Origin: Gymnopus androsaceus JB14
Lineage: Eukaryota; Basidiomycota; Agaricomycetes; Agaricales; Omphalotaceae
Assembly: GCA_009733575.1 (NCBI GenBank)
Contig: ML769506.1
Location: 123,610 to 187,609, forward strand
Direction of reading: 5' to 3'
DNA length: 64,000 nt
Shown: piece by piece, positions 39,187 through 62,815 of the stretch
How the letters are laid out: the number at the start of each line of letters is the position of its first letter
Numbering within the stretch: the first letter of the stretch is position 1
Position numbers and translations under genes: made by a program
The notes under the pieces: model-generated
What the model was told of the DNA's origin: nothing
Database searches by the model: none
What the model saw: the letters and a program-made list of their open reading frames with translations, nothing else

Positions 39187-39369
39187 GGCGTTCGTGTGGA
39201 AAGAAATTGGGGTTGGAAGTTGAATGTGAAGAAGCGGTCCGCGCTTACACTGGTCAGCATGCTTACAATTCACCAGAGGCGCCGAGGAGAAGATATCGAA
39301 AGTAAATGCCCGGTGTTACATTTCACTGCCGCTGATATTTTGTGATACTGAAGGATAGACATAACATAC

Positions 39370-39790: not shown

Positions 39791-39814
39791 AGAACTCAAC
39801 GGATACATCTGCAA

Positions 39815-39930
39815 AACCTGGTTGGTCTCCAGAGGTCTCCAGAGATCTCCAGAGCTCTGATAGCTGTCAAAAAGCTGTCAAACTCCTCCAGATGTCTCTG
39901 GAGGTCTCTGGAGATCTCTGGAATCACTAT
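39815..39930. repeat. Palindromic TCTCCAGAGA-rich segment
   Basis: The left half repeats TCTCCAGAG about three times and the right half repeats CTCTGGAGG/ATCTCTGGA. The halves are inverted around AGCTGTCAAAAAGCTGTCAA, so the strand could fold into a long hairpin. Confidence 0.7.
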
Positions 39931-40176
39931 CCTTGCTCCAGAGACGAACGAAATGTATTGTGATGGTACAGGTTTTGCTGATGTAGGTGTGAGGATCCGA
40001 CATAAGTTACTGCGATATCGACGCGTTGTGCATCTCTATGATGCCTCAACTCGGATATCTGACTCTGGAGAATATCTAGCTGGGTTTCTGCTTCGAGGAT
40101 GTGATTTTGAAGGAAAGATCGCGGTTAGCTTGAGCTATGATCTTGGGCTAGATATTATGATATTGCAGAGGGCTAT

Positions 40177-41157: not shown

Positions 41158-41324
41158 GAGGGCTATCATGATAGAAAAATATGAGGGTCGTTGATCGAGA
41201 AAGATCGAAGAAAGGCTGCCTTCGGGAATTGCATGGCCATAAAGAACCAAGTTCTATCAAAATCATCCTCGAGCGTCGAGGTGGCAGCTACATAAGAAGT
41301 GTATGAGGTCAAGAACATTCGAAT

Positions 41325-42987: not shown

Positions 42988-43295
42988 GGCGTTCGTACGC
43001 GTTTGGAAAAGAAAATGGAGGTGGTAGTTGAATATCAAGAAGCGGTCCGCGCTTACACTGGTCAGCATGCTTACAATTCACCAGAGGCGCCGAGAAGACA
43101 TTCAAGTAAATGTAGTTTCCTCAAAGTTTCCTCTCCTTGTTTCTTTTAACCTGCAACAATCTGTTTCCATCGAATATTACGTGCTCTACTTCGTTTAACA
43201 TCTCACAATGTCCGTCAGATAGTAGTCACCATAAGTCTTTTTTTATCTGGGCATGGTTACATAGAAGCATGAATGACAAAAAAACTACAAGACGT

Positions 43296-43894
43296 TCATG
43301 ACCGTGCAGCACCAGGCACGTTACGACGCTCCCTTCTCGGTCCACGCTCAGGTACGGCGACGATGGGGGCAGCGATAGTGACTTGGATGGAGTCAAAGTT
43401 GAGAGCAGTGAGAAGGGCCTGGAAGACAGAAAAAGCTTAATAAATTATTAACAAAATGAACGATCGAAGGCACCTTGGTTTCAGGGTCAACCTCAAGACC
43501 AGCAACAGAGGTATCGAGAGCAGAGACTTCGGGAACATAGTTGTCCTTGCGCTCACGCTCTTCCTCCTGCAGTTTGAAAGAAATACCGGGAACAGGACCT
43601 TTCTGGATACGCTTCATCAAATGCGTAGTGAAGCCGGAGATTTTGTTGCGCAGACGCTTGGAAGGAACGACGGCGACTTCATCGATGATACGCTTGTTGG
43701 TGTGGAAGTCGAGAGTGAGACGAGGGTAGCTAAAAAATCGAATTTATTAGAGATTCAAAAATAATAATGCAAGTTTTACGCACTATTTCTCAATCAACAC
43801 CCTGGAAGCCCTCTTGGTAGTTTTTGTTCTAACTCGACCCTAAATTCCAAGGATGAGTTGGAGATGCGCTGAATCCAAGCTCGATACTTGCCAT
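43296..43894 (-). CDS. rps17: 40S ribosomal protein S17 (eS17)
   Basis: Small-subunit ribosomal protein. ATG 43892-43894 is its own exon. A 52-nt GC-AG intron (43840-43891, donor GCAAGT) follows, then [19 protein letters not shown] (exon 43784-43839). Next comes an exon from 43729 with [40 protein letters not shown] and [17 protein letters not shown]. After one more intron, [20 protein letters not shown] continues to the stop at 43296-43298. Length and sequence match the eS17 family, with a slightly extended C-terminus. It is head-to-head with rps22, 282 bp between start codons. Confidence 0.95.
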
Positions 43895-44176
43895 TTTCTA
43901 CGTGCGTGTTGGGAGACTGAGACCGAGAATCAGAGGATGGAGGGAAGAAAAGTGGCGTGGCTTGAAACTGGCTAGATCACGTTCTGCAGTATTAGCCACC
44001 AGAAATAGGCGCTTATTATTTTTTCGTTCTCTCTTCTTCCTCCAATCTCCCTCCAAAAGGTGTTTATATAGCCCGTTTGACTCGCGCTTTCCGTAGTGCG
44101 ACACTCAGACTGGGTTTTAATTTGTACTTATACTGTTTGTAGGCCATACTTGATCGACCTTTTTTCGTCTTTCAAA
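43895..44176. promoter_or_regulatory. Shared rps17-rps22 divergent promoter region
   Basis: The 282 bp between the two start codons must hold both promoters. Pyrimidine-rich runs near 44020-44060 and 44160-44175 lie just before the rps22 start, as is common for ribosomal protein genes. Co-regulation of the pair is inference from the layout. Confidence 0.6.
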
Positions 44177-44961
44177 ATGGTTCGCGTATCTGTCCTTGTG
44201 AGTAGCGGGTTTACTTTATTTTGGAACTGAGCTCACTGTTTTATAGAACGACTGCCTCGTGTGTACAACTCTTGTTTCAATGTCCCCAGTCCTCTAAATC
44301 ACGTCCAGAACAACATCGTCAACGCCGAGCGCCGTGGCAAGCGTCAGGTTCTCATCAGACCTTCTTCCAAGGTCGTTGTAAAATTCTTGAGTGTCATGCA
44401 GAGACACGGTGAGTTCGAGTACCTTGCTCTTTTCTTTCCAACCCTCGAAGTGATAACTACGATTGACGAGGTCTCGCTTCCACCCGCCCCTCGTTTTAAC
44501 GCTTCGAAATATCAATACAGTCCCACACAAACCATACAACGCGTCTCTTGCTTTTTTTCACAAGAGTCGGGTTCACAGTGGGACCACATCTTTTTCTTTT
44601 CTTATCTTGGATATTGACGCAGTACTGATTCCTCATGTTTTCAAGGTTACATTGGTGAATTCGAAATCATCGATGACCACCGTGCTGGTAAAATCGTCAT
44701 CCAGTTGAACGGTCGCCTCAACAAGACTGGTGTCATCTCTCCTCGTTTCAACGTTCAGGTTACTCAGATCGAGTCTTGGGTCAACTTGTTGCTTCCTTCT
44801 CGTGGTTTCGGAATTATCATCTTGGTGCGCTTCATTTTCTGGTTTGTACTACGAATGATTATTGATTCTCCGTTTCGCAGACTACCTCCTCTGGTATTCT
44901 CGACCACGAAGAGGCTCGTCGTAAGAACGTTGGAGGAAAGATCCTTGGCTACGTATACTAG
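44177..44961 (+). CDS. rps22: 40S ribosomal protein S22 (uS8/S15a)
   Basis: Small-subunit protein of about 130 residues, intact. Exon 1 gives MVRVSVL. Exon 2 is a 12-nt microexon (44247-44258, NDCL). Exon 3 gives [20 protein letters not shown] and ends FLSVMQRHG. Exon 4 gives [40 protein letters not shown] and GFGIIIL. The last exon gives [20 protein letters not shown] and ILGYVY, stop 44959-44961. Without the microexon the N-terminal helix would lack four residues conserved in the family. Fragments of its 3' half recur at 39.4, 47.8 and 48.5/62.7 kb next to F-box copies. Confidence 0.95.
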
Positions 44962-45108
44962 TTTGCTTGTAGCGTTATGTAGTGTATGTTATGCCTATGC
45001 TTCAGTACCACAAAATGATAGCGGCAGCCTGCTCTAAGTAAGCGCGTCAATTTGCGGACCGCTTCTTCATATTCAACTTCCATCTTCAATTTCTTCCAAA
45101 CGAACGTC

Positions 45109-46452
45109 ATGTCCACTTCCAATACCTTTCGCCGCTGTTCTTCTTGCCAGTCCGAAATGGAAACATTCCTTCCAGAGCTCGACCCCGCACATCGAGAAAT
45201 TTACGATGATTTCTGCACGAAAAGTCGCTCCAACGACATCCCGAATTCGGAGGTCGAGCGAGCCCAGTTGCAATCCCTCATCGAGCGTAACAGTAGCGAT
45301 CTTCAGAGATACGACGACGCTATAGCTCGATTGCAGGACCAACGCAACCAGCTGGATAAAATTGTGCAATATCAAAAGTCGTTGATTTCTCCCATCCGAA
45401 AACTTTCACCGGATGTACTGGGAGAAATTTTTGAGCTCGTCACTACCGACCAGTTCATTAATCTTGAAATTTACGGCTCTAAAGCTCGTGGCATTGGTCG
45501 CGTATTTGGATTGACATGGATCTGCTCTTGGTGGCGGAAGCTCATTCTCTCCCGGCCCACTCCATGGTCCCGTATACAGCTCAGGCTGGATGATCTCAAT
45601 GCTATAAATACTTCCCAGTTCATAAACATGATGGAGGAAGTCCTTCTGCGCTCTGGGACTACTCCTCTGTGTCTTAAACTGACGCGCGATGACGAGTCTT
45701 ACTTCTCCGAGTTTCAGCTCAGTGTCCTAGATACTCTCGCAGGAAATACGATGTACCGATGTAAGGATTTGGAAATCCGGCTGAATAGCTTTTCACAGCT
45801 AGATAAGCTCCTGAGCTTGCTAGCATCAGGCACCCACTTCGAGCTTATGAAGCTTTCTATCGTTATCTGGGACACTTATCGCTTGGAAACCAAACCATCT
45901 AGATTCCTCGAGCATCTATCACTTAATTTCCCTCGTCTACAGACCTTGAAGACTCCGTTTCTCCGTCTAACGGATCCGATAGACCTCGCGAACCTAACAA
46001 TCCTGCAAATTCATGTCAAAATTTTCGGTGGCTACATGAGAGGCCTACTCGAAAGATGCCCTCTGTTGCAAGGCCTATGGGTATCTTCATTTCGTTCCCA
46101 AAATGACACACCACCCTCTCTCGCCTCTGTCTGTCACACTCATCTAACGAGTCTGACCGTCGACTACAGAGACAAGCAGTTTCCCGATGGAGTCTGGGAC
46201 TATGTTCAGCTCCCTAATCTGACTTTTCTTTCAGTTTATAGTAATGTTCCGGATGCATTCTTTGAAACGAGAAACTCATTCAACGAACTGAAAACGATGT
46301 TAAAATACTCTCGCTGCATGTTGCAGAATGTTGACTTTTTGTTCGTTCCAGATACTGCCGTGTCGTTGTTTTTCCAAGACGTACCTGTTAGTCCAGAATG
46401 TAGAGTTGAAGTTGATGAAATTCCTTACCAAGTACCTTTTCATTCATCCTAG
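45109..46452 (+). CDS. F-box-like/LRR protein, family copy 3 (intact)
   Basis: Intact single-exon gene of 447 residues, about 150 bp after rps22 on the same strand. The start MSTSNTFRRCSSCQSEMETF is chosen by agreement with the other copies; the open frame extends upstream to 45052. A CSSC pair near the N-terminus is followed by a coiled coil (RAQLQSLIERNSSDLQRYDD, about residues 45-80) and the F-box-like motif SPIRKLSPDVLGEIFELVTT (about 90-115). Then come SWWRKLILSRPTPWSRIQL and leucine-rich repeats to QVPFHSS. Such proteins are expanded in Agaricomycetes and probably act as SCF substrate adaptors; the target is unknown. Confidence 0.88.
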   Translation: MSTSNTFRRCSSCQSEMETFLPELDPAHREIYDDFCTKSRSNDIPNSEVERAQLQSLIERNSSDLQRYDDAIARLQDQRNQLDKIVQYQKSLISPIRKLSPDVLGEIFELVTTDQFINLEIYGSKARGIGRVFGLTWICSWWRKLILSRPTPWSRIQLRLDDLNAINTSQFINMMEEVLLRSGTTPLCLKLTRDDESYFSEFQLSVLDTLAGNTMYRCKDLEIRLNSFSQLDKLLSLLASGTHFELMKLSIVIWDTYRLETKPSRFLEHLSLNFPRLQTLKTPFLRLTDPIDLANLTILQIHVKIFGGYMRGLLERCPLLQGLWVSSFRSQNDTPPSLASVCHTHLTSLTVDYRDKQFPDGVWDYVQLPNLTFLSVYSNVPDAFFETRNSFNELKTMLKYSRCMLQNVDFLFVPDTAVSLFFQDVPVSPECRVEVDEIPYQVPFHSS

Positions 46453-46784
46453 ATTCGTACGTTTTTAATTGTTCTCGACCTTACATATGCACTTTCTATG
46501 TAGCTGCCATCTCGACGCTCGAGGATGAGTTTGATAGAACACTGTTTATAGTCATGCAATTCCTGAAACAGCCTTTCTTTCCTCTCTTTCTTGATCAACA
46601 ACCCCCATATTTTTCGAGCATTTCGATAGCCCTCTGCAATGTCATAATATCTAGCCGAAGGTAGTAGCTGATATGGATCAAGCACCCGCGATCTTTCCTC
46701 CAAAGTCAGATCCCCGAAGCAGAAACCCAGCTGGATATTCTCGAGAGTCAGATATCCGAGCTGACGCGTCAAAGAGATGCACAA
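46449..46784 (-). CDS. Hypothetical ORF convergent with F-box copy 3
   Basis: A 111-codon ORF overlapping the last bases of the F-box gene on the opposite strand. It reads like protein (LGYLTLENIQLGFCFGDLTL, LPSARYYDIAEGYRNARKIW, IKLILERRDGSYI) but I do not recognise it. DNA homologous to it follows F-box copies 1 and 2 (about 37620-37800 and 40120-40176 plus 41158-41320) with stops and shifts. It is therefore an old component of the duplicated unit, perhaps the tail of a once longer gene. Confidence 0.4.
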   Translation of the reverse strand: MCISLTRQLGYLTLENIQLGFCFGDLTLEERSRVLDPYQLLPSARYYDIAEGYRNARKIWGLLIKKERKERLFQELHDYKQCSIKLILERRDGSYIESAYVRSRTIKNVRI

Positions 46785-48490: not shown

Positions 48491-48589
48491 TCAGGCTACT
48501 CAGATCGAGTCTCGGGGGAATCACTTGGTGCACTTCATTTTCTGTTTCTTACGAATTATTAAGACTGATTCTCCACTTCGTGACAGACC
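48491..48589 (+). pseudogene. rps22 fragment, left of the 14-kb element
   Basis: TCAGGCTACTCAGATCGAGT and GGTGCACTTCATTTTCTG match rps22 exon 4 and the start of its last intron, then ATTCTCCACTTCGTGACAGA matches the intron end. The fragment retains intron sequence, so it was copied as DNA, not through mRNA. It resumes at 62707 after the element. Confidence 0.8.
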
Positions 48590-48615
48590 TATGAGGTCAT
48601 TTTTCACCAAAAATT
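48590..48615 (+). repeat. Left terminal inverted repeat
   Basis: 26-bp end of the 14-kb element, four mismatches against the right end (positions 9, 12, 17 and 23). Confidence 0.9.
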
Positions 48616-48653
48616 ACAACTTTTGATTGATCGGTTTTGATTGCAACTATATA

Positions 48654-48728
48654 CTTCAACTTCGTCAACTTCAACTTTTTGTATATGGTTCTACTTCGAA
48701 TGAAAAGTATTTCAACTTCAACTTCATG
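48654..48728 (+). repeat. Left subterminal TTCAACTT array
   Basis: TTCAACTT or CAACTTCAACTT recurs about five times. The mirror array sits at 62581-62666, suggesting integrase-binding sites. Confidence 0.75.
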
Positions 48729-49168
48729 AGAAATATCCAAGTACCAATAAATTCGACTTCTGCAGAGCCAAGGAAGTGCTGGCTGAGGTACAGGTTCAAC
48801 TATTATGCCTACAGTATTAGTCACCCCTAGAATGACTTTGAACAAGCTTTGATCTAATGTGAGAACAATTCCCCTCAATAGAAACACAATTTCCCCCTGG
48901 TAGAGAAACAATTCCCCCCTTGCTCCAAATGCCCTCATACTTCGCTTTGGAGCCTTGAAACTTTTACTCTAGCAATGCAAGGCTTCAATTGCTATTTAAT
49001 CTTGCCCCGGCGCTATGCTATCGCCTTATAAGGACCTTCAAAATCGAAAATGCGCCACCTACTTTCTCGTCGAATCTCACATTCTTTTACTGCCTTCAGC
49101 ACATATACTCTTACTGTGAGCCAAGATCATCATGTCTATCCTGTTCTCAACTAAAGCAATTTTTAGCA

Positions 49169-52100
49169 ATGGATTCATTGAACCGTGAACATCTTCTCTC
49201 TTTTTTGCAACAAAATCCAACACTTTTGGCCGACCTCATTTCTCCGCAACCGCCGCAACCGTCATCTGCCACTCCTGCTTCTGCTCAGCCAGAAGTCATT
49301 GCTCCGCAGCCTTTACATATGTACTCTGTTCAGCAGAGTACATTTGTTCCTACACAGCATCCCGCTCCTCCCCCTTCTCAACCTGCTGCTGCTCTTCCTC
49401 CTCAGCCCGCTATCGCTCCTCTTTCCCAGCCTGCTACTGCTCCTCCACCTCCTTCCCAGCCTGCCGCCACTCCTCTTCCTCCTCAGCCATTTGCTTATCC
49501 CCTCCTGGTTCCTGCAACCCCATCAGACCTTATTCCAGCTTGAACATGCTTGCAGGTGTAACGGCTCGCCAACCTCAGGCTTCTTCCTCAAGCGGTTTTC
49601 CTGCTCAAACTACTATTGGCAGAGCAAACCAGGAGCGAGTGGAGCATGCAGCTTCATCTGGAGATGGCTCTTCGACCTCTGAGAAGAGAAAGACGAGGAA
49701 GAAGGCAAAACACCCCCCAGCACTTCAAGGAACAGCTATGCCTACTATTAACCATACTCTTGCTACGGCTGAAGATGGGACAGTTGTTGTGAATCTGGAG
49801 GTCCTTGTTTGTTTTGCTATACCTAACATTCTTGATCGAAAGGTATGTTTTCAAACCACAATACAGTCACTAAATGCTAATTTATTAGGAGCTTAACCTT
49901 CCCAATTCGTTTTATCACTATGCAAGGCACATGTTGTCTTTCAAGACACTTCTCCAATCACTCGGTCTTCTCCATATTGTTGACGGTGTGCCTGTTACAA
50001 CTCGAGTCCGCAATCTCATGCAACACCTGGTCCAACTTTGTACCCAGGCTGGCATGCAGTTTCCGACCACACCTGGTAAACGAAGTCTTTTTTCATCTGA
50101 AGCGTTGCTCCCCATCGAGCTTCTCGCGTTCACCAGCAGCGGTCACATCAACAACCAGGCCAAAACTCCAAGGCTTACCACCACCTTTGTCAGTGATACT
50201 ATGACGTTGGCAGACATTGTTTATGACACCGGCCAATTTGCTATTGCTCATCATGTTGTGACAGCTCATAACCGGTTCATGCTTCACTTTGGTATGCTTG
50301 AGCTTGCTTTATGTCTACTTTTTTAGTTGCTGATAAAATTATTATTCAGCCATATGGTCCAACAAGATGATATTCAACATCAATCCTTATGAGTTAGGCT
50401 TAGGCTCTGATGACAGCGTCCGCCCCCACCAATGCCTTGGACTTCGCACCTATGGCCTTCTTAGGAGCGATGTTGATGCTGAACTGGATCTTGGTTATGA
50501 GGCCCTTGATGAAGAAGCCATCAAGAACCATTGTGCTGGCTCGGAATCCTCTGATGAAGAGGTAAATTTCCATTCATATATGCTTTGAAGCCCTCATTTA
50601 TTAATTCTTTCCAGAATGCTATTGTAGCACAGTTACTTGTACCGCAAAGCAGCACAGCTGAGTCGTCAAACGCAGGCAGGTCATCCGCACAGTGAAATGC
50701 TATCTTCTCTCATTGGACTTATTTCAGCTTTTGCATCTTCATCGACGCCCAGTACAGGTAAGTTTTGAATGCGTTTGCTCTCCCATTCTCTAAGCCTTTT
50801 GTCTGATCAATTGATACCAGATGCTGCATCTTCCGAAGTGACTTTGAACACTGTCACCTCAGCTCCCACCGCTTCTGTAGCACCTGATGCTAGTAGGTTA
50901 TTGCATCGTTCAACACATCTACTAGTCTCATTTGATGTCTAGCTACTGGCCTAACAACTCGATCAGCACTGGCAGCGTTGCAAGCGGTAAGCATGAGCAA
51001 CTATTCTCTTTAGGAATTGCAAGCTGATCATACATAGGTCACTGTACCGGTAGCAAAACTTTGGGAATCGCGCTACGTTGGTCCAGCTCCTTTGGATGCT
51101 TTACCTGGATTTTTTGCTTTCGAACGAAAGGACCACATTTTCAACGCAATCTCTGCGCAATACCGTCAAGTTAATGGTGGCCTCGAATGCCCAGGTATTG
51201 AAGTCAGAGGGGCCAACTTGGATGTGCTGGTGGAACAGTTCACAGCCCACATGCGCCATGCAGCACGAAATCAAGACTGGACACCGTTACTTTGTCAAAG
51301 CCAGGTCTTTATGCAGTACGTTAAGTTTTATCTCTCCCGAGTGTCTTACCGTTGATCCGTTTCATATTTCAAAGGGTTACCATCAACCAACAAGGAGAAA
51401 CTGAAGTGGTTTCTTCAGGTCATGGCCTAGAGGTTGAGGTTATGAATTGCATCTTCAAGCATTATCTTGAGGATCGACTCCATGATTTCTGCGTCCCCCT
51501 CATTGACAACTACTATACTTTGGCTACCATACCTCTAATCTCCAACTTTTTGCTTTCCGAAGAGAAGCGTGAAGAGCTTCAACTTTTTGGAGCTGCTGTT
51601 GGTCTGGCTTTGGTTCACGGACAGTTCCCGTCAAAGATCAACCCGCTGTTAATCCTTTGCAGAAGCGACCTCCGAGCCCTGTCCAAAGATTTAGTTCAAG
51701 AACACTTCCCTGCTCTATACCGTACGTTGAAGGCTTGGAATGAGCTTCATTACACAGAGAATAATCTTTCGGAGTTCAGTGCGCATTTTTCACTTATCAC
51801 CAGAACTTCTCGGTACATGCTCTTGCTTATTTTATGAGCAGATCCTTACCTATGCGTTCTCTACAGATGGCTTCCCTTACTCCCCGCTCCGAGCAATTTC
51901 ATCTTTCCCTTGCATGGACAATGCTTCATAATGCAATTATAGGTGCTGTTTCCATTGAACACCCTTACTTTAAGGCATTCTTAGAGGGCCTCAAGCTCCC
52001 CTGTAAGAACTCATTCAATCTATCAGAGGTAAGCTGCTGGAGCTTTCAATCTTTTTGCATCTAACTCGCTATCTTTTGTACTTTAGATTGCACATAGCTA

Positions 52101-52770
52101 TTTGGGAGAAGTCTCTGGGTTCGTTGTGGACTTGATGAGCGCCACCATCAAATCTTTCCAAGATCTACGCTTGATAGTTAGAGAGGATATCAGCGAAGGA
52201 GAGAAGAGGGCTTTGAACGATGCCTTTTCTGCAAGCGGGCCTCAGTATCAGGATGCCTCTTTCAGTGCGCTCTTTCAGGAGTTCCTTGAGGGTGTTGGAG
52301 CACCATCCGCCGGTATGCTTGATGCCGTCAAGGATCGATACGAGCCATCGGTAGCGTCCACCCTTGAAAATTTGAACCAGCCAGCATACCGCATGAAAAT
52401 GTTTTGTTGGGCTGCATCGGGAGCACCCAGAGTGATGCCTGATGAGGACCCTATCAAGGCGAGTGCCTGTTTCCTTCTTCACTTCCTGCTTTAGCTTATT
52501 CTCTCAAAAAAGGTATGCCTTGTGAGCGACGGCGATCCCTTGTATGCTCCTTTGAACCAGCAAGCGGGCGTGCTTGAAAATCAGCTTTTGAGAGGGAATA
52601 TATCCTTCAAGACTTGCTCCCGCTATATGCTAATACCAGTTTCGTATCTTATCAAACTTTTGAGGACACCATACAATGGCGGCTCTGAGTATCGCGATGT
52701 AAAAGCTGCAGTCCATACCTGGCTTCTTACGGAGATCCTTGACGGGATAGGTACATACACCACTCTTTAG
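49169..52770 (+). CDS. HECT-like ubiquitin-ligase-type protein
   Basis: Many-exon gene inside the 14-kb element. The start MDSLNREHLLSFLQQNPTLL is followed by a long Pro/Ala-rich stretch, a basic KRKTRKKAKH patch, and LLQSLGLLHIVDGVPVTTRV. Then come an acidic segment and the C-terminal region. That region reads GLEVEVMNCIFKHYLEDRLH, LFGAAVGLALVHGQFPSKIN and YRTLKAWNELHYTENN, resembling a HECT N-lobe. It ends MKMFCWAASGAPRVMPDEDP, NISFKTCSRYMLIPVSYLIK and WLLTEILDGIGTYTTL, resembling a C-lobe with the Cys of FKTC at the catalytic position. Stop 52768-52770. The join of the Pro-rich exon to the next frame near 49540 is not resolved (intron or shift). HECT assignment rests on motif spacing only. 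Confidence 0.65.
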
Positions 52771-53377
52771 GATAGTTATACCTGTACAACTTCTAATTGC
52801 CAATCTTTTGAATTCACTTTACCTACCTATGCATACATATACCCTTACTATAGGTTTCCTGGCTCCAATAATAATAAGAACTGTTTTATATTTTTACATT
52901 ACGCTTTAATTCAACACATGCAAAAGCTAGCAGCGGTTATGATAATGGTAGTCTCGATGTGTGCAGAGTTGTCCCAAGGTAGTTGCATGGTGAGAGGTAC
53001 CTTAAAGCTATCTTCTGAGAGCGTGCTGAGCTTGGCAATAGCATTGTCAAATAGCTGCACAGCACGGTATGGGTTATTGAAGATTTCATAGTAGAAGATG
53101 GAGAAGTTCAATGTGAGATCTAGGCAGAGACTGAGAGAAGAGCGAAAAAACCAAATCAATTGACAAAATAGCATAGCGGATAATAAAGACATTGTGCAAG
53201 CTGTTGGTACAAAAATCATTTACAATGAATACATTTATTAGGTTGCTCAACCTCAGCATTGCTCAGTTCACCGAACTCGCTACGCTTGTCTGACCCTGCC
53301 GCTACAAGGCGACTACCTTTCCAGTCTCCTGCTACCAAGTCGCTCCAATGTGTAAACTTTTCCAAGTTTACCTGCCA
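52771..53377. other. Intergenic inside the element
   Basis: Convergent 3' flanks of the HECT-like and dioxygenase genes. A 102-codon minus ORF (52911-53219) has hydrophobic patches but no clear identity. Confidence 0.3.
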
Positions 53378-55185
53378 TCAGCGCGTTCGGTCGAGTTCCC
53401 TCTCCTTCAGTTCAACCGTTGAAGCTTTGGCCATGAACATCTTGTCTGAACACCAGCCATTGTATCGCCAGCGAAAAAGACCACCCGCTGAATATTGGAC
53501 AATGGACCGACGCTGTTCATGATCTTGAACAGGAATGTTAGAGTGAGTAATTAAGGCGGATGGAAAGAGGATGGTGGCACCCGGAGGAAACCTAATGACA
53601 AGCTTCAAGTTCCATAGTACAAGGTGACCACCTTTGTTGGGATCATAGTTCCCAAGCGCTGTGTCAGCGCACCAACCATGTGCAATGTTACCAGCATCAA
53701 GGTGCGGAGGGGTTACCATGCGTGGGCCAAAATTAACAGTCATAGCTGCGAAAACTGTCTTCAAAGATGTTGGGTGAAGTTGGGGATTTCGCTGGATATG
53801 TTCTGTAAGAGTTTCTTTATATTCAATGTATGTCTGGTGAGCAAACGAATTGAACACAGCTGAAAGCACAATAAGCCAGCTGCAGAGGCTACGTAGAACA
53901 ATCACAAATAAGAACTTACAGTTGGTGAAGCCCACTAGACGTCTCATATTGGGATGCTGGTGAAGCCTCTCCATGGCTTCCTGGTTCGCTTTTCCAGAGA
54001 TCTGGACGTTCCCTGGCACCTCGCGACCTCCGCTGTAGCTGATGCCCGCAGCACGAGCCATAAATTCCCCTCGAGGATGGTGTTCTTCTTTAGCAGCAAA
54101 CGAACTCTCCGTCTTGCATCGAGCCACAGCTTGGTCAAGGTTGGACGTGCTGTTGGCCCAGTCTCCGCTCTCTTCTGCACTCGGAGGGACACCGGCAGCA
54201 CTGAAATGATGCGGTCTTGAGCATCTACAAGAACAATGCAGGTGCTAAGGAAAGCAACCAGTGAATATAGCAACAAAAGCAAGGGCAGAGGACTTATGTG
54301 CCGTCCCACTCCAGCAGACGAAATTCACGATCTGTGAGGAGCGCTAGATGCCTCCAAAGGCTCAAAAGCCCAGCAGAGAGCTTTCCACCTTTCCGATTGC
54401 CAACCCAGCCAGAGGAAGCTACGGGGAGCGTCGACGAGTCAAAATCACCAATGCGATTGGGGCAAGCGTTCTTCACATTCTTGACAGCTCGAGGCCTAAG
54501 CTCATTTTCAACCTCGCGGACCTGAGCTGTTTCAGCACGCTGTGCCCTCTGACGGACACGCTTATTTGCATTCTTCCTAGCCTTACGCCATTCTTTGCCA
54601 TGGAGCTCGAGGGAAGGGTCGACGGGTTGTTTTTCATCTTCAAAAGAAGGAATGAGGGAGAGTGATGATGGTGTAGAATTCCGTTGAGGCGGGCTGGGTT
54701 GCTGGAGAAAGTTTGCAGAGTCTTCTTCGTCCTTGAGCTCAACATTCTCATCATCAACAACCTCTACTCCCTCAGTAACATCCCTCCGAACCTGGCCGTC
54801 CTTTTCCAAAACATCCTCCAAGCTAAAGCTTGGAAACTGTAGCTTATGCGCTTTGAATGCGGCGCGGGTGAGAACTACGGGTGAAAAAGGTTAGCGTGCT
54901 GAAAAGGAGGGCTGTGGAAAAAGGCTTAAGAACAAGGGCTGGCATTCCCAGAACTTTGAGTCGCTACCTGCTCCGGTGAGAGAGTTAGCTGCACCTCAAG
55001 CCCTGGGCTGCCAGCCGAAGAACGCGTGTAAAGACTGAAAGTGCCAGCTTTCACAAGACTTTGAGGTGCTACCTGCTCTGGTGAGAGAGTTAGCTGCATC
55101 CCTAGGCCTCAAGCTATTGGCAGCTCCCCAAAACGTGCAGAATTGAACAAACGGTAGAAGAAACGGCGCCACACTTACCAGGCAT
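53378..55185 (-). CDS. TET/JBP-family-like 2OG-Fe(II) dioxygenase
   Basis: The family includes DNA 5-methylcytosine/thymine oxidases; basidiomycetes have many copies. I start at ATG 55185 with a tiny first exon (ATGCCTG) spliced to VLTRAAFKAHKLQFPSFSLE. A charged disordered part follows with KEWRKARKNANKRVRQR, then WVGNRKGGKLSAGLLSLWRH. The oxygenase part reads RGEFMARAAGISYSGGREVP, MRRLVGFTN (intron) SVFNSFAHQTYIEYK, and VFAAMTVNFGPRMVTPPHLD with the HxD iron site. It continues NKGGHLVLWNLKLVIRFPPG, ATILFPSALITHSN with the distal His, and RRSIVQYSAGGLFRW with the 2OG-binding Arg. Stop at 53378-53380. All metal and cofactor residues are present, so activity is plausible. Substrate is inferred, not shown. 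Confidence 0.82.
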
Positions 55186-55404
55186 CCTGGGACCTGGGGC
55201 AGCTTTATGAAAAGATTTGCTGCAATCAATCTAGATGATAAATTCCAGAGATTTTGATTTATTTTGAAGGTAATAAGCCCAATCGAAGCTAGTTGAGGTC
55301 TGCAGGAAAGGTTGGAGAGTAAACGGGCTTAGGCGCTCACCGTGAACCGTGCACATGATTTGGCAATGATTTGGCGCTAATTTTCAAAGCGCTGATTGTC
55401 CTTT

Positions 55405-56466
55405 GCTCAACTGCTTCCACAGATGTCGCCAAAACAGGCCCCAAAGTCTTTACTGAACGAGCATCAAACGACGAAGTGGTGCCTGCTGTCGCCGTACAAG
55501 ACTCCTATTACGATAATACTTACCTCTGACCTTCATTTTAGCACAAAATATGCCTATAGATGGACAAGCAACGTCATGTACAAGCTCCGGAGGATTCCAA
55601 ACATCAGACGGAACTCTCTACGTCTCCAAACCCTTCAAGTCAAATCTTCCAAGAAACTGCGCCCTGTTATAACCTTTGCACCAAGGCAGTCTACCTTTGA
55701 TATGTATAACGAAAGTTCTGGCGCGAATGAATTCTGGGTGCGTTTATTAACCAAGCCAACCAACTCGACCTCCTTTTTCAACTTGTCTTATTTAGGGATT
55801 CTTCACCCTTTTCTGGATCTCCATATTCATCTTCACCGTACGAACGTGTGTCCGAAGTATCGAAACCAACAGACATGCGTTCAACCTTGTATTCGCTACC
55901 ATGTTCTCCAAAGATGCTATCACTCTGGCCGAGTGACGCTGCGTTGGTCGGAAATACAAGCATTTGTGTCCTCTTTGCCAAAGCCATCTCGAATAGATGG
56001 ATCCGTTATCATTAGGCTGGACTCATCATTCAGCATATTTTCCAGACTTCGGTGTTGATTGTAGCTGTGGGTTGGACGTTTAATCGGTGTGTCTTCCTCT
56101 TCTTCTTGCGTTGTTCCAATTTCAACCATGTCCAACAATAGTGACTGGCCATAGGTCCAATCCAGCTTCTTCACTCTCCACACACTCGTCATGATCATGA
56201 AGGTGCATTCTTACATGACCATAAACGGCTATCTCCAACCCATATCCCAACAATCCCAAGCCATCCTCAAAGAACTTCGTGCTGCGACTGAAACTGAGGG
56301 AGGTTGGGAGCATTCGATATCCGTGGCCAACGGGTCTTCCTTTACCGTCGAGTCTTCCCAAGCTCGTACTTCAGGAGGTTCCTCTCCGATAGGCACATAC
56401 ACACCGCCGGTTATAGATGGTGCGAAACCCTTGTGTGTGGATCCAGAGACGGCGAAAACGTCTATC
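55405..56466 (+). pseudogene. are2: Sterol O-acyltransferase (ARE/SOAT) gene fragment, decayed
   Basis: Recognisable pieces in order: DVAKTGPKVFTERASNDEVV, RQSTFDMYNESSGANEF then GFFTLFWISIFIFTVRTCVR, and FATMFSKDAITLA. Next are SDAALVGNTSICVLFAKAIS, NRWIRYH, AGLIIQHIFQTSVLIVAVGW and TLVMIMKVHSYMTINGYLQP. This is the N-terminal half of the MBOAT enzyme that esterifies sterols in the ER. The copy has a shift after DAITLA and an in-frame TAG after RWIRYH. The catalytic C-terminal half is absent. It is a host gene fragment captured by the 14-kb element and no longer functional. Confidence 0.7.
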
Positions 56467-58095
56467 TAGTTCACGCTTTGGGCCATTCCTAGACGTTAAA
56501 GCCTATACGCCAGGTTTTAGAGGGCCTGAGGGGTTCGATTCGGGAAGATGGTAAGTTTATTCAGCTCGTTTTACCGTATTAACGTTAACTCGCTGAAATC
56601 AAGCTCGGCGCAAGAACTTTGGCTGGCTCTTCTACAACTGCTACCACGGCATCGACTACTCTAGTACAACCGTCTCCGCCACCTCCACCACAAGCTCAGC
56701 CACCTCTTCTTCATCTTCCTTGGATACGTCCACCGCTGGGTCGTCTGCTCCGATCGCTGGCACGGTGCAGGCCCTCCTCGAAGCCAGGTATCAACTTCTC
56801 CAACTTGAAGACATACGGCCGTGCGTCCAAACCTGATGGCTGCCAGAAGACGACGGAACGCGCTGCTCGAGACCCCGAGGAAGGTTGCTGGGTTGTTTGG
56901 GACTGGATATTTAGGGTGTGCACTTGGCATCTTCATGTTTCTCAGCAAGCAGGGTTTGCCGAGCTGGAACGCTCAACTTCGACGAAGCTGCTGCCAAATT
57001 CTTTGTTCGACATCAATACCAACCTAAATAGGTGAGCATGTTGTGTCTATTTAGTTCTCTCTAAGATATTTCTCAAAATGTCTTTAGTAAACGCGTGGAC
57101 TCTAGCCATCCAGGACCTTTCTCTCCAACTCCTTCCACATTTCCAGCGTCACTTCCATCCACCAGTCCCTAGATCTCACCCAACTCCTGGTCCCATTGCC
57201 AAATTACAGCTCAAACGTGCCCCGCTTTAAGAAGACCAGTAGATTACGCTTTACATACGGAAAATATAAGTTTTTAACCTGCTTGCCTCTGCACCTAAGG
57301 CTTCATTTGTGAATTGCTATAATGCTCAGTATGTGTGTATGTTGACATATCATTCTGCATGCTATGATAAAGGATATGACAGCTGGCTGGCTAGTACAGA
57401 GTGAAAAGTAGGATGTTCGAGAGTCAAAGCGTCTATAAGTTTTTGATTTTTGATAGAGGTACTCAAAGGTGCATACCTAGCACTGAATCCATGGCAAGGG
57501 AGGTTGGATCAGTTTGACAACACCAGAGCTACTTTGCGCCCAGCTATCACAATTTATACTGGTATGCAATGTGCTACCAATCAAGATGTTATCAAGCAAG
57601 TAAATCAAAAAAAGCAAAGTGATCGCTGGAGCACATATTTCTGAGACTGAACTGTGCATCTTCCTTTTTAGCGATGCCTTCAATCTGGGAAAGGAGGTGC
57701 TGGGCGGGCAAGGGTCAGAACCGTAAGCAGAGCAAGGGCTTTTCTCTGGCAAAGCAGGTAAGCAGGATATATTAACATCTATCTAATCAGTCACATAGGC
57801 TGATAAAACTGGTGGACTAGGTATCGTTGGCAAAATTATGGACAAGGGAGGGAGTAAAGATGGTGTTCTGGGTGGCTGGTCTGCAACGAAGCAAGGTGTA
57901 GGTATAGCGTAATTAAAGTGAATCTGATAGGTGTACTGTATTGTTAGCAAGATAATGAGGGAGTCGGAGGATATACGTGGTTGTTTAAAGCGATTAAAGA
58001 AAGGCTAGTAGGCTTATGGATTCGGTTCGAAGGAATGAGAAGGGAAAAAAAGACGCAGCAATGTTTAAGTGCAGTTTTGAAATCAAAAATTGAGA
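56467..58095. other. Unassigned DNA inside the element
   Basis: Coding-like fragments occur on the plus strand: VKAYTPGFRGPEGFDSG and NFGWLFYNCYHGIDYSSTTV around 56490-56680, and AYLALNPWQGRLDQFDNTRA around 57450-57620. I can assign none of them and see no continuous gene. They may be further captured host fragments. Confidence 0.35.
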
Positions 58096-59542
58096 CTATG
58101 TTTGGCGAGAGATGGGCATAAGGTTTGAGTCAATTTCAGACCAAAAGTCTCTAAGATGCTTCAGATGAAGACGAGCTGCGTCTCGCTCCCAAACATCATT
58201 AGATTGAGGGTCGAGCAGCTGCCTTACTTTAATAAACCCTGGGTTTCCCCAAAAATAAACCATTCTTCGCCACGTATTGTAGGCTGTTGGGATTTGTGTT
58301 TGGTCTAATTAATGAATGTTAGCACTGGAGATGATGAAGGTAGATAATACCCACCTCGTGATGGATTGAGACGTGTCCTATGACGCCAAGTTTTAGTCGC
58401 TACTGCATTTTCTGCCCAATGGAAGAGATTGGTTTTCCTTTGGTACTCCCTGTGAGACCACCCTAATTCCGTCAAAATTCCAGTGAAAGTCTGCACGCGG
58501 CCATTCTCATAGGTGTAACGCTGCGTCTTTGGACCCCCTTTCTCGGGACAAAACCTGAGAGACTGGAGTAGCTGTTCTGCCCTAAGGCAAAGCAAAACTA
58601 TTTCAAAGAACAAGGCGCTTGCACCTCAATGTTGTTGAAATGATACAGATTCAAGCGGGATGCTTAAGCTTCTGCACACTTCTTTGATGGTGTTTCCGTG
58701 AAGAGTTGTAGGAATAGGTATGGCCATGATTTGAGGGCTTATAAGCCCCAAAGAGGTGACGGAGGAACCTGGTGTTAAAAGAGAGGGTGAGGGCAAAGTA
58801 TGCCTGGATCGACCTATAGCTTGGTATGGATGAGACGCAAGGGCAATGCGTTCATTTCGAGGCTGAATCAACACCCTTGCCTCTGTACGTGGTGAGAGAT
58901 TGGATAAGGAAGGAAATGATGATGCGTAGACATAGGGGTTAATGAAAATTACAAGGAAGTGAAGATGGTGGAGAAGCGTGGAAGTGAAGGGGGCACGCTC
59001 ATATGAACTAAGGAATGATTGGACGGCTCCAGAGTTGACATCCATTGCAAGTATATCGGTCAGTGGAGAAGAGTGGATTCCATTCACGGTTGCATTGCAG
59101 AGAGACCCTAGGAACCGAAACCCTGGAGTTTGGGATATATTCCAACTATTTATAGTCGGCACTACAGCAGAGAGTAGTGTATGTTCCTCATCCAAGAGAG
59201 CATCATGGAGCTCAGGAGGGAGTGTCACAGCTGCATCCACATCCAAGCCAAGCTTGCACTGCAGTGCACGAACAAACGTGCCAACGGAAACCATAACTGT
59301 ACTTGCTTGAAATAGCAGCTCAGAAGAGAGAATGGGTATGTTATAAAAGGAGTGAATGGCAGAAGCTGGGCTTTCCTTGTGAGGAGCTAAAGCAATGTGC
59401 ATTGAGACGTCTAGGATGAAAGTTAAGCATTAATATTAAATTTGCATGCACAAATAAAATACTTACCAGTGAAAACAGTCTGTAAAAGAAATTCAAGGTC
59501 GTTATTAGGGATCTCAGCTTGGAAGCCTGGCTCTGAGGCCAT
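58096..59542 (-). CDS. Uncharacterised element-encoded protein
   Basis: Unrecognised gene. A first exon from ATG 59542 reads MASEPGFQAEIPNNDLEFLL and splices (intron about 59410-59466) to DVSMHIALAPHKESPASAIH. The main exon continues FVRALQCKLGLDVDAAVTLP, TINSWNISQTPGFRFLGSLC and LTDILAMDVNSGAVQSFLSS to about 58630. Further exons read CPEKGGPKTQRYTYENGRVQ and FHWAENAVATKTWRHR, then IPTAYNTWRRMVYFWGNPGF and WERDAARLHLKHLRDFWSEI, with TAG at 58096-58098. About 390 residues if complete; the junction near 58600 is not resolved. No known domain, signal peptide or membrane segment. Position between cargo and integrase suggests a role in the element's own life cycle, which is inference. Confidence 0.55.
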
Positions 59543-59776
59543 GTTGGAGTTGGTAAAGAATGAAGATATTTTCTCACACGGCCTTGTGGTTATGAGATTT
59601 GGCGTTAGGCTCCTCAAAATTACCAGTACCTGTGGGCTAGATTAACTGTAAAAGTATTTGAGGCTCAGATAGGTTTTACAGTTTTTGAATCTCGATATAT
59701 GCAATAAATTTCGATGTTTATCAAAGATTAACAGTTTTTATTATTTGACTTCAGCTGTGCGTGACCATGGTGTTCC

Positions 59777-61818
59777 ATGAGCAAACGCCGCAACTTGTTC
59801 ACCGCCAACATGTTCAAACCAAAGTCGCTCCAATTCTTGTTGATTTATGCTATAACTCTTCTCCTTTTGACTCGTTATTGGTCAGCCAGTCTTGCCTGCT
59901 ATGCCAGTAACGTCAACGGCACCAATCCAATCCCTCAGGATACTGGTGGACCTGGGCCGATATCCCAAGACGCACTGCTGCTGAATAAATTTCGAGAACA
60001 TTACCATCATTTTGAGTCAGCAGTTACTCAGGTTCGCAGCCAGGAAACCGATGTTTTCCTCCTGGAGGTACTGGGAGAGGATGTCAATGATTTTTCTGCA
60101 GTCGTTAATGAGGTACATACCTACACCCTCTGCTTATTCACCGACTAAACTCATTTAATCTGTAGTATTCCCATGTTTTTCCAGATCAGTCGGAATGGCA
60201 AACTCTCCGCACAAATCTCCAGCTCATGCTCCTTGACATTCGCAGCCTTCATGGCGAGAGTACGGAGCGATCTCAACAAGGACGTCCAACGATTGTTCAC
60301 CAGGAGCGAACTGGACGCCCTGGCCGTCCTCGCACTGTCATCAATCGGGATTTCTTGAACTGGGCTTATACTCAACGCACGACTTCAGGTATTGGCCACT
60401 TTTTAGGCCTCAGTCGTAACACTGTGAGGCGATCATTGCTTGAATATGGGTTCGCTCCTTCTGGTGCTAATCCTTTCCCTTCCAACACGAGCACTAGTAA
60501 TGCTGAGGCTGAGGATGAGGTCCTTGACCCCTCACCATCCAATGCTCATACTGAGCTTCCTGCTGATATTCGAGATGCAGCATCATCTATAGCCTCTTCA
60601 TCAGGCTATTTGTCCAATATGTCTGATGAAGATTTGGATGGAATTATATGTTTGTTGCGCTCACATTATCCAAGGGCTGGCATTCGCATTCTTGACGGTA
60701 TGTTGAGAAACCTTGGTCACATCCTCCCTCAAGAGCGCATTCAGAAATCGCTTATCCACGTGGATCCTGTACATCGAGTCTTTGAATGCATTCGCATTCG
60801 GAGACGTCACTACAACGTCCCTGGCCCAAACTCCCTCTGGCACCACGATGGCCATCACCGTGAGTTTGTTGAACTTTGATAGACAATTGTTAAAATCTTT
60901 CCTAGGACTCATTCAATGGGGAATTGTCATCCATGGCTTCATAGATGGTTATTCTCGCACGATAACAGGGATGAGGGCAAGTGACAACAACCATTCACCA
61001 ACAGTACTATCTCTATTTCTCTCTGCTGCAGAGCAATATGGGCTTCCGTCGTGGGTCCGTGGCGATCATGGAGTGGAAAATATATGGGTTGCTGCTTTCA
61101 TGGAGCATGTTCGAGGTGCAGGTCGCGGATCTTATATATGGGGACGGTAAGAAATATTGCATACATTAGGTTTATGAAGCTTACATTTTCACTACTAAGC
61201 TCTGTTCATAACACGTGGATCGAACGGCTTTGGGTTGACGTATCCAACTACATTACCCAACATTGGAACAATCTGTTCACTGCACTGGAGCTTCAACATA
61301 GCCTGGACATCAACAATCCAAACCACATATGGTTGCTGCATCATCTCTTTCTCGGCACTATCAACGATGCAATAAGCTTCTGGATTAGAAGCTGGAATCA
61401 GCACCGGATCAAGCAGCGCAATGGTCCCAACTGTAGCCCTGAAGACATGTTCGGATTCGATATGCTTGTTCGGGGGATCCGAGGTGATTCGGTAGACCAG
61501 TTCGCAATGTCGGATGAAGAGCTTGAGGTTTTTGGTATTGATTGGGAAGGGCTACAGGACGAGACCCTACTCCGGGCGCTTCGTAAAAACTATGTGCATG
61601 AAGAGGGGACAAGTACATGGCATGGACGGCATGGCCCTCCTCCAAACTTAAACGAAGTGCAGGTAGACCCACCTTCCAGTAGACTGACCGCAATCCAAAC
61701 TCAGAGCCTCGATGGCGCTCTTCACCACATTCCTCGAAGCTCTGAGGAGGCTGACGTTGTTTGTCTCTGGGTTACCGCACTTGCACATGCTCGTACATTA
61801 TACCCTCATGATTTTTAG
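59777..61818 (+). CDS. DDE integrase (rve-like, HHDGHH type)
   Basis: The probable transposase of the 14-kb element. The N-terminal exon reads ASNVNGTNPIPQDTGGPGPI and HYHHFESAVTQVRSQETDVF. After an intron, GESTERSQQGRPTIVHQERT, then a helix-turn-helix region (NWAYTQRTTSGIGHFLGLSR, NTVRRSLLEYG). The catalytic core reads SLWHHDGHHR (first Asp), an intron, LIQWGIVIHGFIDGYSRTIT, and GLPSWVRGDHGVENIWVAAF (second Asp). After a last intron comes SVHNTWIERLWVDVSNYITQ (Glu). A C-terminal extension reaches TAG 61816-61818. All three acidic residues are present and introns keep frame, so it may be active. The start at 59777 is the first ATG in the open frame; a later one is possible. Confidence 0.85.
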
Positions 61819-62580
61819 CCAGTATTCATACTGTAGTTCTACATAACTGACTTCAATGCATGGTATAAAATATTGTGCGAGGTACAGCATCTACTCTAGC
61901 GTATAAATTCAAGAAAAACACGCGAATCAATGGGCGTCTATATGACATAAAAGGTACCGTCAAATGCGCACATCTGTTCATGATTGTTACTATTGTGGTC
62001 GAGAGGGACCTGAAACTGAGAAAGGGATCCAATTCTGGAATTAGGACTTGTCTTTCTCCCATGAAAGAGACACACTGTTCTTTGGCCGAAAGGCAGTTGG
62101 TGAAGAGCAAACAGAAGGTGTTTTCCATCGAAAGCGGAATGATGCGGAAATGAGGCGGGATCAACTTGATTTTGTAGACGTTGGATCAGTTCGACGCGAT
62201 GACGGCGCAAAGGAAAATGGACATGAAGTTGAGCATGTATGGGCTGAAGTTGGAAGTAAGCCAAATGAATTAGAATGCCCGACTAGTTTTGTTGCGAGGT
62301 GCAATTGCTGCCCATGGGGAGCAAATTGTGGGGAAAGTGGGGGGATATCTAAGCGAAATGGGTGCGAAATGGGGGCTAACAGGCCCTGTGTAAATTGATC
62401 TCTCCAAAGTTGAGACAGTCCAGTTATAAGCTGGCTCAAACAGATTGTGCAACGCTCTTCTTGATAGGTTACTAGCTGAATATAATACATTGTAGAGCTT
62501 TGATCGCCAAATAACTAGTAAATTTTACATGACCACAAGTAGCAGCGTAATCACCTGAAGCCATAGTTAAGACAACGAAT
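61819..62580. other. Non-coding right part of the element
   Basis: Several overlapping ORFs of about 100 codons on both strands, none with family features. No supported gene. Confidence 0.3.
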
Positions 62581-62666
62581 GTTGAAAGTTGAAGTTGGTC
62601 AAAAAAGTTGAATGTTCAAGTTGAACATGTGATTTAAAGTTGAAGTTGAAACACGAAGTTGAATTT
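62581..62666 (-). repeat. Right subterminal AAGTTGAA array
   Basis: AAGTTGAA, AGTTGAAGTTGAA and related words recur about six times, in inverse orientation to the array at 48654-48728. Confidence 0.75.
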
Positions 62667-62680
62667 ACAGTTAAAGCCGA

Positions 62681-62706
62681 AATATTTGGCGAAATATCAC
62701 CTCATA
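62681..62706 (-). repeat. Right terminal inverted repeat
   Basis: Inverse partner of 48590-48615, followed directly by the CAGACC target duplication. Confidence 0.9.
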
Positions 62707-62815
62707 CAGACCACTTCCTCTGTCACTCTCGACCGCGAAGAGACTCATCGTAAGAACGCTGGATCCACGAGGAAAGATTCTTGGCTACATTTACCAGTTT
62801 ACTTGTAGTGTTCCT
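62707..62815 (+). pseudogene. rps22 last-exon fragment, right of the 14-kb element
   Basis: CAGACCACTTCCTCTGTCAC, CTCGACCGCGAAGAGACTCA and AAGAACGCTGGATCCACGAG continue the rps22 fragment that stops at 48589. It lies upstream of F-box copy 4. Confidence 0.8.

What the first reader, a model, noticed from the sequence alone, without database searches (positions are those of the whole stretch)
48590..62706. Complete 14.1-kb DNA transposon with integrase, TET/JBP dioxygenase and HECT-like cargo
Seen: 26-bp imperfect TIRs (22/26), exact 6-bp target duplication CAGACC, mirrored subterminal arrays, and five gene-like units including a DDE integrase with all three acidic residues. Known: TET/JBP genes in basidiomycetes have been linked to other (KDZ) transposons. 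Inference: here the dioxygenase travels with a different, rve-type integrase, possibly IS3EU-related by its TAY ends and 6-bp duplication. The union of a DNA-methyl oxidase, a ubiquitin-ligase-like protein and an integrase in one bounded element looks unusual and may be undescribed.
Basis: partly seen in the sequence, partly recalled or inferred. Interest (0 to 1): 0.92.

Follow-up and report, generated by a model that had tools for sequence, protein, structure and literature searches.

The report
Jumping gene with DNA-demethylation enzyme
A 14-kb fungal jumping gene really does carry an integrase, a TET-like enzyme of the kind that oxidises DNA methylation and a possibly ubiquitin-ligase-like protein between matching ends; the general kind was published in 2025, but this gene combination and the apparent swapping of the enzyme gene between jumping genes look new.

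Summary
48590-62706 has 22/26 TIRs and an exact 6-bp duplication, CAGACC; the best of 60 shuffles reached 16/26. Three more elements with exact 6-bp duplications and integrase plus TET matches lie in the same genome. The integrase (D340, D397, E432; PF24764) fits IS3EU.

TET+ IS3EU transposons were published in December 2025 (PMC12730594: rusts, with an alpha-kinase; Tuber), so the union is not undescribed in kind. Not found in print in my searches: (1) a HECT-like gene as regular partner, upstream of and co-oriented with the integrase at 12 of 12 loci where the two lie within 20 kb; (2) signs that the TET cassette is exchanged between elements: against copy C805, dS is 0.36 for TET, 0.64 for integrase, 1.14 for HECT-like; against C82, TET dS is 0.84 while integrases are 37% identical.

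TET and HECT-like genes show purifying selection (omega 0.15-0.26).

Weak points: the HECT name (best Pfam E 0.012, 1 of 5 copies), TET models below cut-off, apparent one-base frameshifts in this copy's TET and HECT-like genes, no exact empty allele, unnamed host. New variant of a known kind.

The parts
48584..48589 (.). left copy of the 6-bp target duplication CAGACC
48590..48615 (+). left TIR, TATGAGGTCATTTTTCACCAAAAATT; its 131-bp end has 42 matches in the host assembly, itself included
48590..48789 (+). left subterminal stretch with 6 inward CAACTT motifs
49889..52767 (+). HECT-like gene, core exons (5' exons probably from about 49171; modelled by hand); apparent one-base frameshift near 51790
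53208..55200 (-). TET cassette: stretch with DNA similarity (about 75%) to the otherwise unalike element C82, gene plus flanks
53378..54890 (-). TET-like dioxygenase gene (HxD...H); apparent one-base frameshift near 54190
58626..59542 (-). gene for an unknown protein (about 286 aa, two exons), matched only in this element and in C137 and C805
59777..61818 (+). integrase gene, four exons by hand model, 629 aa, D340-D397-E432, PF24764; start codon uncertain
62507..62706 (-). right subterminal stretch with 7 inward CAACTT motifs
62681..62706 (-). right TIR; its 147-bp end has 41 matches in the host assembly, itself included
62707..62712 (.). right copy of the 6-bp target duplication CAGACC

Best explanation
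An IS3EU-type cut-and-paste DNA transposon of a fungus (probably a mushroom-forming one) that carries a TET-like gene and a HECT-like gene. Shown: its bounds, its 6-bp duplications, its multiplicity, the repeated association of the genes, and purifying selection on them before the present copies. Inferred: the integrase recognises the TIRs and the inward CAACTT arrays and joins the ends to a 6-bp staggered target cut; the TET-like enzyme oxidises methylcytosine on the element and probably elsewhere, loosening methylation-based silencing; the HECT-like protein, a regular partner of this integrase, may mark host silencing factors or the transposase for turnover (weakest step). TET is an acquired module: it is found in 5 of the 12 loci with HECT-like gene and integrase, and in one element without a HECT-like match, and its history differs from that of the genes beside it, so it seems to pass between elements, most likely by recombination. 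This particular copy may no longer make intact TET and HECT-like proteins.
For: Exact ends far above shuffles; three further elements with exact 6-bp duplications and exact 6-bp duplications at 10 of 14 short TIR-bounded copies by script, an eleventh by eye; gene linkage: 6 of 95 TET loci within 8 kb of an integrase match against 0.95 expected, 12 of 18 HECT-like loci within 20 kb of an integrase match against 0.025 expected per locus, order and orientation the same in 12 of 12; omega with bootstrap intervals below 1 for integrase, HECT-like, TET and the unknown gene; unequal dS of the genes in one pair of elements; TET+ IS3EU published.
Against: HECT assignment weak. TET matches its Pfam model only below cut-off and no PDB chain by sequence. 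Frameshifts in this copy. The C741 integrase has lost the stretch with the second D and the E, the C82 integrase match holds stops, and the C137 TET gene is split by a retrotransposon: none of the other three bounded elements is intact throughout. 46 of 95 TET loci lie near neither KDZ nor integrase matches. Integrase dS is lower than HECT-like dS in both pairs too, so unequal constraint may explain part of the dS differences. No test of enzyme activity, expression or methylation was possible.
Confidence: 0.75

Rival explanations
1. Chance passengers: a plain IS3EU element into which TET and other sequences were carried by recombination or gene capture, with no role in its spread. Capture of host fragments by related elements makes this conceivable.
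For: Related elements hold host-like fragments: RNA polymerase II largest-subunit domains in C741 and C193 and an ABC-transporter domain in C805. 7 of the 12 loci with HECT-like gene and integrase have no TET match.
Against: TET stays open to selection: omega 0.16-0.26, near that of the integrase. The order HECT-like, TET, unknown gene, integrase is shared by the window, C137 and C805, which differ by 22-30% in DNA. HECT-like gene and integrase keep order and orientation at 12 of 12 loci.
Confidence: 0.15
2. The partner gene is not a HECT ubiquitin ligase but an unrelated transposon protein with a chance resemblance.
For: 0 Pfam matches for the window protein; PF00632 in 1 of 5 copies, E 0.012; hhalign probability 1.5%; PF00632 genome scan lists none of these loci; PDB search negative.
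Against: HMMER (C805) and hhalign point to the same N-lobe segment, with P 0.034 against 0.28 for a TET profile as control; a Cys in SFKTC near the C-terminus is kept in 4 of 4 aligned copies that reach it.
Confidence: 0.4
3. A Ginger- or Polinton/Maverick-type element rather than IS3EU.
For: Polinton also makes 6-bp duplications (passage of PMC10045372); the core is also rve-like (PF00665 E 3e-6).
Against: TA..TA ends and no HHCC as in IS3EU/GingerRoot; Ginger1 and Ginger2 make 4- or 5-bp duplications; no polymerase, packaging ATPase or capsid match among the ORFs that were scanned (not every ORF was).
Confidence: 0.05

Closest known systems
TET+ IS3EU DNA transposons of Pucciniales and of Tuber indicum (Kojima 2025, PMC12730594)
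   Same: TA..TA ends, 6-bp duplication, TET gene between the transposase gene and an accessory gene.
   Different: There the accessory gene is an alpha-kinase in the opposite orientation to the transposase, TIRs exceed 30 bp with TAYGG..CCRTA ends (Pucciniales set), and the main text does not mention HECT. Here it is a co-oriented HECT-like gene, the ends are TATGAGG, and 13 alpha-kinase matches all lie on contigs without an integrase match. C82 does have TATGG ends and 41 bp of perfect TIR.
IS3EU/GingerRoot superfamily (PMC10045372, passages)
   Same: TA..TA ends, usually 6-bp duplications, integrase-like DDE without HHCC.
   Different: The passages seen mention no HECT gene (0 occurrences); whether TET is mentioned was not searched there.
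TET+ Kyakuja and Zisupton (KDZ) transposons of Agaricomycotina (PMC12730594)
   Same: HxD-type TET-like gene inside a DNA transposon; at least 43 of 95 TET loci in this genome lie within 8 kb of a KDZ match.
   Different: No KDZ match within 8 kb of any of the six integrase-linked TETs; 6-bp duplications instead of 7 or 8; these TETs are split from the 12 sampled KDZ-linked ones in the tree.

Membership tests
IS3EU/GingerRoot | TA..TA termini | tested here: met
   window, C137, C741 and C82 all TATG..CATA
IS3EU/GingerRoot | 6-bp target duplication | tested here: met
   exact in the window, C137, C741 and C82; 10 of 14 short copies by script, an eleventh by eye
IS3EU/GingerRoot | integrase-like DDE core without HHCC | tested here: met
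   D340, D397, E432; no HHCC-like pattern upstream; PF24764 E 4e-64
IS3EU/GingerRoot | transposase groups with Repbase IS3EU references in a tree | not testable with these tools
   no reference sequences at hand; protein database search was off
TET+ IS3EU set of Pucciniales (Kojima 2025) | TIR over 30 bp ending TAYGG..CCRTA | tested here: not met
   window TATGAGG, 22 of 26; met by C82 only (41 bp perfect, TATGG)
TET+ IS3EU set of Pucciniales (Kojima 2025) | alpha-kinase gene on the other side of TET | tested here: not met
   HECT-like gene there instead; alpha-kinase matches on no integrase contig, 13 of 13
TET/JBP dioxygenase | HxD...H metal-binding residues | tested here: met
   HLD and H in the window; HxD in 5 of 5 integrase-linked rows that could be read there, C805 blanked
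TET/JBP dioxygenase | match to the family model | tested here: inconclusive
   PF12851 E 0.0048, 4 of 8 members of A2 at E 0.022 or worse, all below cut-off; no PDB match
TET/JBP dioxygenase | oxidation of methylated bases | not testable with these tools
   needs an enzyme assay
HECT ubiquitin ligase | match to the HECT model | tested here: inconclusive
   PF00632 in 1 of 5 copies, E 0.012; none of these loci in the genome scan; hhalign P 0.034, probability 1.5%
HECT ubiquitin ligase | C-terminal catalytic Cys | tested here: inconclusive
   SFKTC in 4 of 4 aligned copies that reach it; equivalence to the HECT Cys not proven
KDZ (Kyakuja/Dileera/Zisupton) | KDZ transposase in the element | tested here: not met
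   no PF18758 match listed within 8 kb of the six integrase-linked TETs (list truncated)
KDZ (Kyakuja/Dileera/Zisupton) | 7- or 8-bp duplication | tested here: not met
   6 bp
Polinton/Maverick | DNA polymerase, packaging ATPase, capsid genes | tested here: inconclusive
   no such match among the element ORFs scanned with Pfam; not every ORF was scanned

The most novel reading that the evidence does not exclude
In this fungus the HECT-like gene plus integrase is a stable transposon chassis, and a roughly 2-kb TET cassette (gene plus flanks) works as an interchangeable anti-silencing module that recombines among IS3EU elements, even between lineages whose integrases are only 37% identical. If the host is a mushroom, HxD-type TET genes are shared there between KDZ and IS3EU transposons, which the 2025 survey did not report for its AG type, and ubiquitin-based interference with silencing would be a second arm of the same strategy.
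Probability: 0.35. Interest if true: 0.76.

Novelty: new variant of a known kind. Interest (0 to 1): 0.55.

Why it matters
It puts an anti-silencing type of enzyme on a transposon chassis with a different partner from the published one, and gives a within-genome sign (different dS for neighbouring genes in the same pair of elements) that the enzyme gene is exchanged between transposons. That makes it directly testable whether TET genes serve the transposon and spread as modules. The HECT-like partner, if confirmed, would point to a second way of disarming the host.

Tried and rejected
Direct empty allele: 357 nt of joined flanks gave no match spanning the junction in the assembly. Two copies of the right flank in the window carry CAGACC once without the element (47809, plus strand; 39362-39497, minus strand); beyond the last 8 bp the left flank aligns to them only weakly (scores 45 and 44; 4 of 400 random window pieces scored at least 45), so this is partial support.

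A second terminal-repeat candidate of the window scan, 37799-46483 (19 of 20, palindromic CATATG), looks like an inverted duplication of a gene family and was set aside. In the scan two candidates with only 5 of 6 duplication bases (C745, a second one in C137) were set aside.

Folds without alignment were poor: TET ORF pLDDT 43.6, HECT-like C-terminus 53.7; the Foldseek search of the latter gave nothing usable. PDB sequence searches gave no TET hit and no HECT hit. Homology of the unknown gene to an ORF at a like place in C741 is not supported (E 0.21). Host identification by Pfam matches of neighbouring ORFs and by one literature query failed. Omega could not be estimated against C741 and C745 (dS saturated). 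The inverted repeat 52224-52258/55180-55214 near the cassette edge was not pursued (71% complementary).
Full report
1. Observation. The ends at 48590 and 62706 are exact: CAGACC|TATGAGGTCATTTTTCACC ... GGCGAAATATCACCTCATA|CAGACC. The TIRs agree at 22 of 26 positions. In 60 Markov shuffles of the window the best comparable pair (TA ends, exact 6-bp duplication, 13-15.5 kb apart) reached 16 of 26. Inward CAACTT motifs occur 6 and 7 times in the terminal 200 bp, never in the opposite orientation there, and 0.18 times per 200 bp inside. The left end has 42 and the right end 41 matches in the 83.3-Mb host assembly, each counting itself; 40 of 81 and 40 of 92 candidates were scored, so these are lower bounds.

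2. Genes. Order: HECT-like gene (+, core exons 49889-52767), TET (-, 53378-54890), a stretch with two ORFs without Pfam match, an unknown gene (-, 58626-59542), integrase (+, 59777-61818). The integrase model has 629 aa over four exons with GT-AG introns, D340, D397 and E432, no HHCC-like pattern, and PF24764 at E 4e-64. The TET ORF matches PF12851 at E 0.0048, below cut-off; in an alignment of eight TETs 4 of 8 members match PF12851 (best 0.022) and 3 of 8 match 2OG-FeII_Oxy_3 (best 2.1e-4). The window HECT-like protein has no Pfam match at E 1.

3. Other bounded elements. A scan of the fetched loci for TAYG..CRTA ends with a 6-bp duplication gave, with exact duplications, C137:29366-51997 (AGAACG, 22.6 kb), C741:96-18475 (CGAAAC, 18.4 kb) and C82:170145-181315 (CAAATC, 11.2 kb); a wider scan that also covered C805 and C408 added none of this kind. 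None of the three is intact throughout: the C137 TET gene is split by a Gypsy-like retrotransposon (recognised by its protein sequences, recalled), the C741 integrase has lost the stretch with the second D and the E, which C193 keeps, and the C82 integrase match holds stops. C82 has 41 bp of perfect TIR and its end has 20 matches in the genome, itself twice. C805 and C193 carry the three genes but are cut by contig ends. C177 keeps integrase and HECT-like matches without TET. Of 14 short TIR-bounded copies fetched, 10 have exact 6-bp duplications by script and an eleventh (C233) can be seen in the printed ends; C52 is imperfect, C121 and C732 have none.

4. Association. From the 111 matches I took 95 TET loci, dropping 16 second pieces of the same loci. 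43 lie within 8 kb of a KDZ match (2.5 expected by random placement), 6 within 8 kb of an integrase match (0.95 expected: C124 = window, C82, C193, C741, C805, C137), none near both, 46 near neither. The KDZ list was truncated and only 150 of 335 candidates were scored, so 43 is a lower bound. From the 59 matches I took 18 HECT-like loci. 12 have an integrase match within 20 kb (0.025 expected per locus), and in 12 of these 12 the HECT-like gene is upstream and co-oriented; a thirteenth, C408, is 22.7 kb away, and five have none on their contig. TET is matched in 5 of the 12 and in C82, which has no HECT-like match. Of the seven without TET I fetched only C177 and C745; a very divergent TET could have been missed. 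So HECT-like gene plus integrase is the regular design and TET an addition. Alpha-kinase, the partner in the published elements, has 13 matches in the genome, all on contigs without an integrase match.

5. Histories of the genes. A tree of 27 TETs (158 columns; rows stacked from tblastn pieces, the misread part of C805 blanked) has a split that parts the six integrase-linked TETs and the unlinked C352, C77, C301 and C611 from the 12 sampled KDZ-linked and five other unlinked ones (SH-aLRT 91.3, UFBoot 95). It does not show that the six form one clade: C741 and C193 group weakly with C77, C301 and C611 (58.3/76), so one capture or two remains open. Nei-Gojobori estimates with codon bootstrap: window against C137, omega 0.18 (integrase), 0.15 (HECT-like), 0.18 (TET), 0.41 (unknown gene); window against C805, omega 0.17, 0.16, 0.26, 0.35; all these intervals lie below 1. 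In the C805 pair dS differs by gene: TET 0.36 [0.28-0.45], integrase 0.64 [0.52-0.77], HECT-like 1.14 [0.94-1.44], unknown gene 0.96 [0.73-1.31]. In the C137 pair it does not single out TET: 0.90, 0.60, 1.00, 0.61. The window and C82 TETs have dS 0.84 [0.66-1.08] and 75% DNA identity over 1.9 kb including flanks, whereas their integrases are 37% identical over 274 aligned columns with saturated dS. I read this as exchange of a TET cassette between elements. Unequal constraint could contribute, since integrase dS is below HECT-like dS in both pairs.

6. The HECT-like name. Of five aligned copies only C805 reaches PF00632, E 0.012, over profile positions 33-116. hhalign against five host HECT domains aligns the same segment with P 0.034 and probability 1.5%; a TET profile as control gives P 0.28. 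The genome scan with PF00632 at E up to 10 gives 17 matches on five contigs and none at the transposon loci. A Cys in SFKTC near the C-terminus is kept in 4 of 4 aligned copies that reach it; host HECTs show TCFN or TCVN near their C-terminus, and that this is the catalytic Cys is recalled. I say HECT-like, about 0.6.

7. State of this copy. The TET gene (near 54190) and the HECT-like gene (near 51790) each shift frame by one base against relatives that read through there. Decay and sequencing error cannot be told apart. The integrase and the unknown gene are open.

8. What is known. PMC12730594 (Kojima, December 2025; read: abstract, introduction, results, part 1 of 2 of the discussion, figure legends, passages) describes TET+ IS3EU families in seven Pucciniales species and in Tuber indicum with 6-bp duplications, and states that all have TET between transposase and alpha-kinase genes. 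For Agaricomycotina it names Kyakuja, Zisupton, EnSpm, Plavaka and Helitron2, and for its AG type it reports no transfer between superfamilies. HECT and ubiquitin do not occur in its main text. IS3EU with HECT gives 0 papers in the library; the listings (several of them capped) show no description of this combination by title and abstract start. Two listed papers hold both IS3EU and Agaricomycetes (PMC8955403, PMC12411881; listing only), so IS3EU in mushrooms is itself not new. Supplements could not be read and most subscription papers are missing, so absence from print is provisional. PMC10045372 (passages only) gives TA..TA ends, usually 6-bp duplications and no HHCC for IS3EU/GingerRoot.

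9. Host. The assembly is unnamed. The large numbers of TET and KDZ matches suggest an Agaricomycete (recalled, not tested); a rust is not formally excluded. The difference in partner gene holds either way; the statement about HxD-type TET shared by KDZ and IS3EU in mushrooms depends on the host.

10. Mechanism. Shown: bounds, duplications, gene linkage, selection, differing gene histories. Inferred: the integrase acts on TIRs and CAACTT arrays; TET relieves methylation-based silencing, as Kojima also proposes for such genes; the HECT-like protein acts on host or element proteins. The last step is the weakest.

Noticed in passing
L021:3565-5280 (C741:4565-6280, minus); similar DNA in C193: RNA polymerase II largest-subunit domains (Rpb1_3, 4, 5 and 6) inside the C741 element, likely a captured host fragment; the stretch is about 90% identical in C193.
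   Followed up: partly
L017:5594-6237 (C805, minus): ABC-transporter domain (PF00005, E 1.1e-14 and 4e-8 in two ORFs) between the unknown gene and TET of the C805 element; that stretch has no aligned counterpart in the window element.
   Followed up: partly
window 37799-46483: Inverted duplication with nearly identical 60-bp ends and flanking palindromic CATATG, made of related gene copies; F-box-like by recall only, no Pfam match at E 0.01 in the two ORFs scanned.
   Followed up: partly
C271:66053-76403 and C21:161197-172390 of the host genome: End matches of the C82 family face each other 10.4 and 11.2 kb apart; C271 has an integrase match and no TET match between them, C21 neither: possible TET-less relatives of C82. 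Not fetched.
   Followed up: no
C77:201910, C301:8236, C611:12814, C352:47129 of the host genome: TET genes on the same side of the tree as the integrase-linked ones, but with no KDZ or integrase match within 8 kb; their carriers are unknown.
   Followed up: partly
window 54934-55109: Two 71-bp direct repeats (80% identical, start to start 105 bp) just upstream of the TET gene, inside the shared cassette.
   Followed up: no
L015/L016 (C137:38104-46466): An 8.4-kb retrotransposon with reverse transcriptase-like and integrase-like ORFs sits in the C137 TET gene (identified by eye from ORFs).
   Followed up: partly
L028:1800-3378 (C82:178800-180381, plus): Two adjoining ORFs (189 and 284 aa) of unknown family in the C82 element; the second has no Pfam match better than E 0.95.
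   Followed up: no
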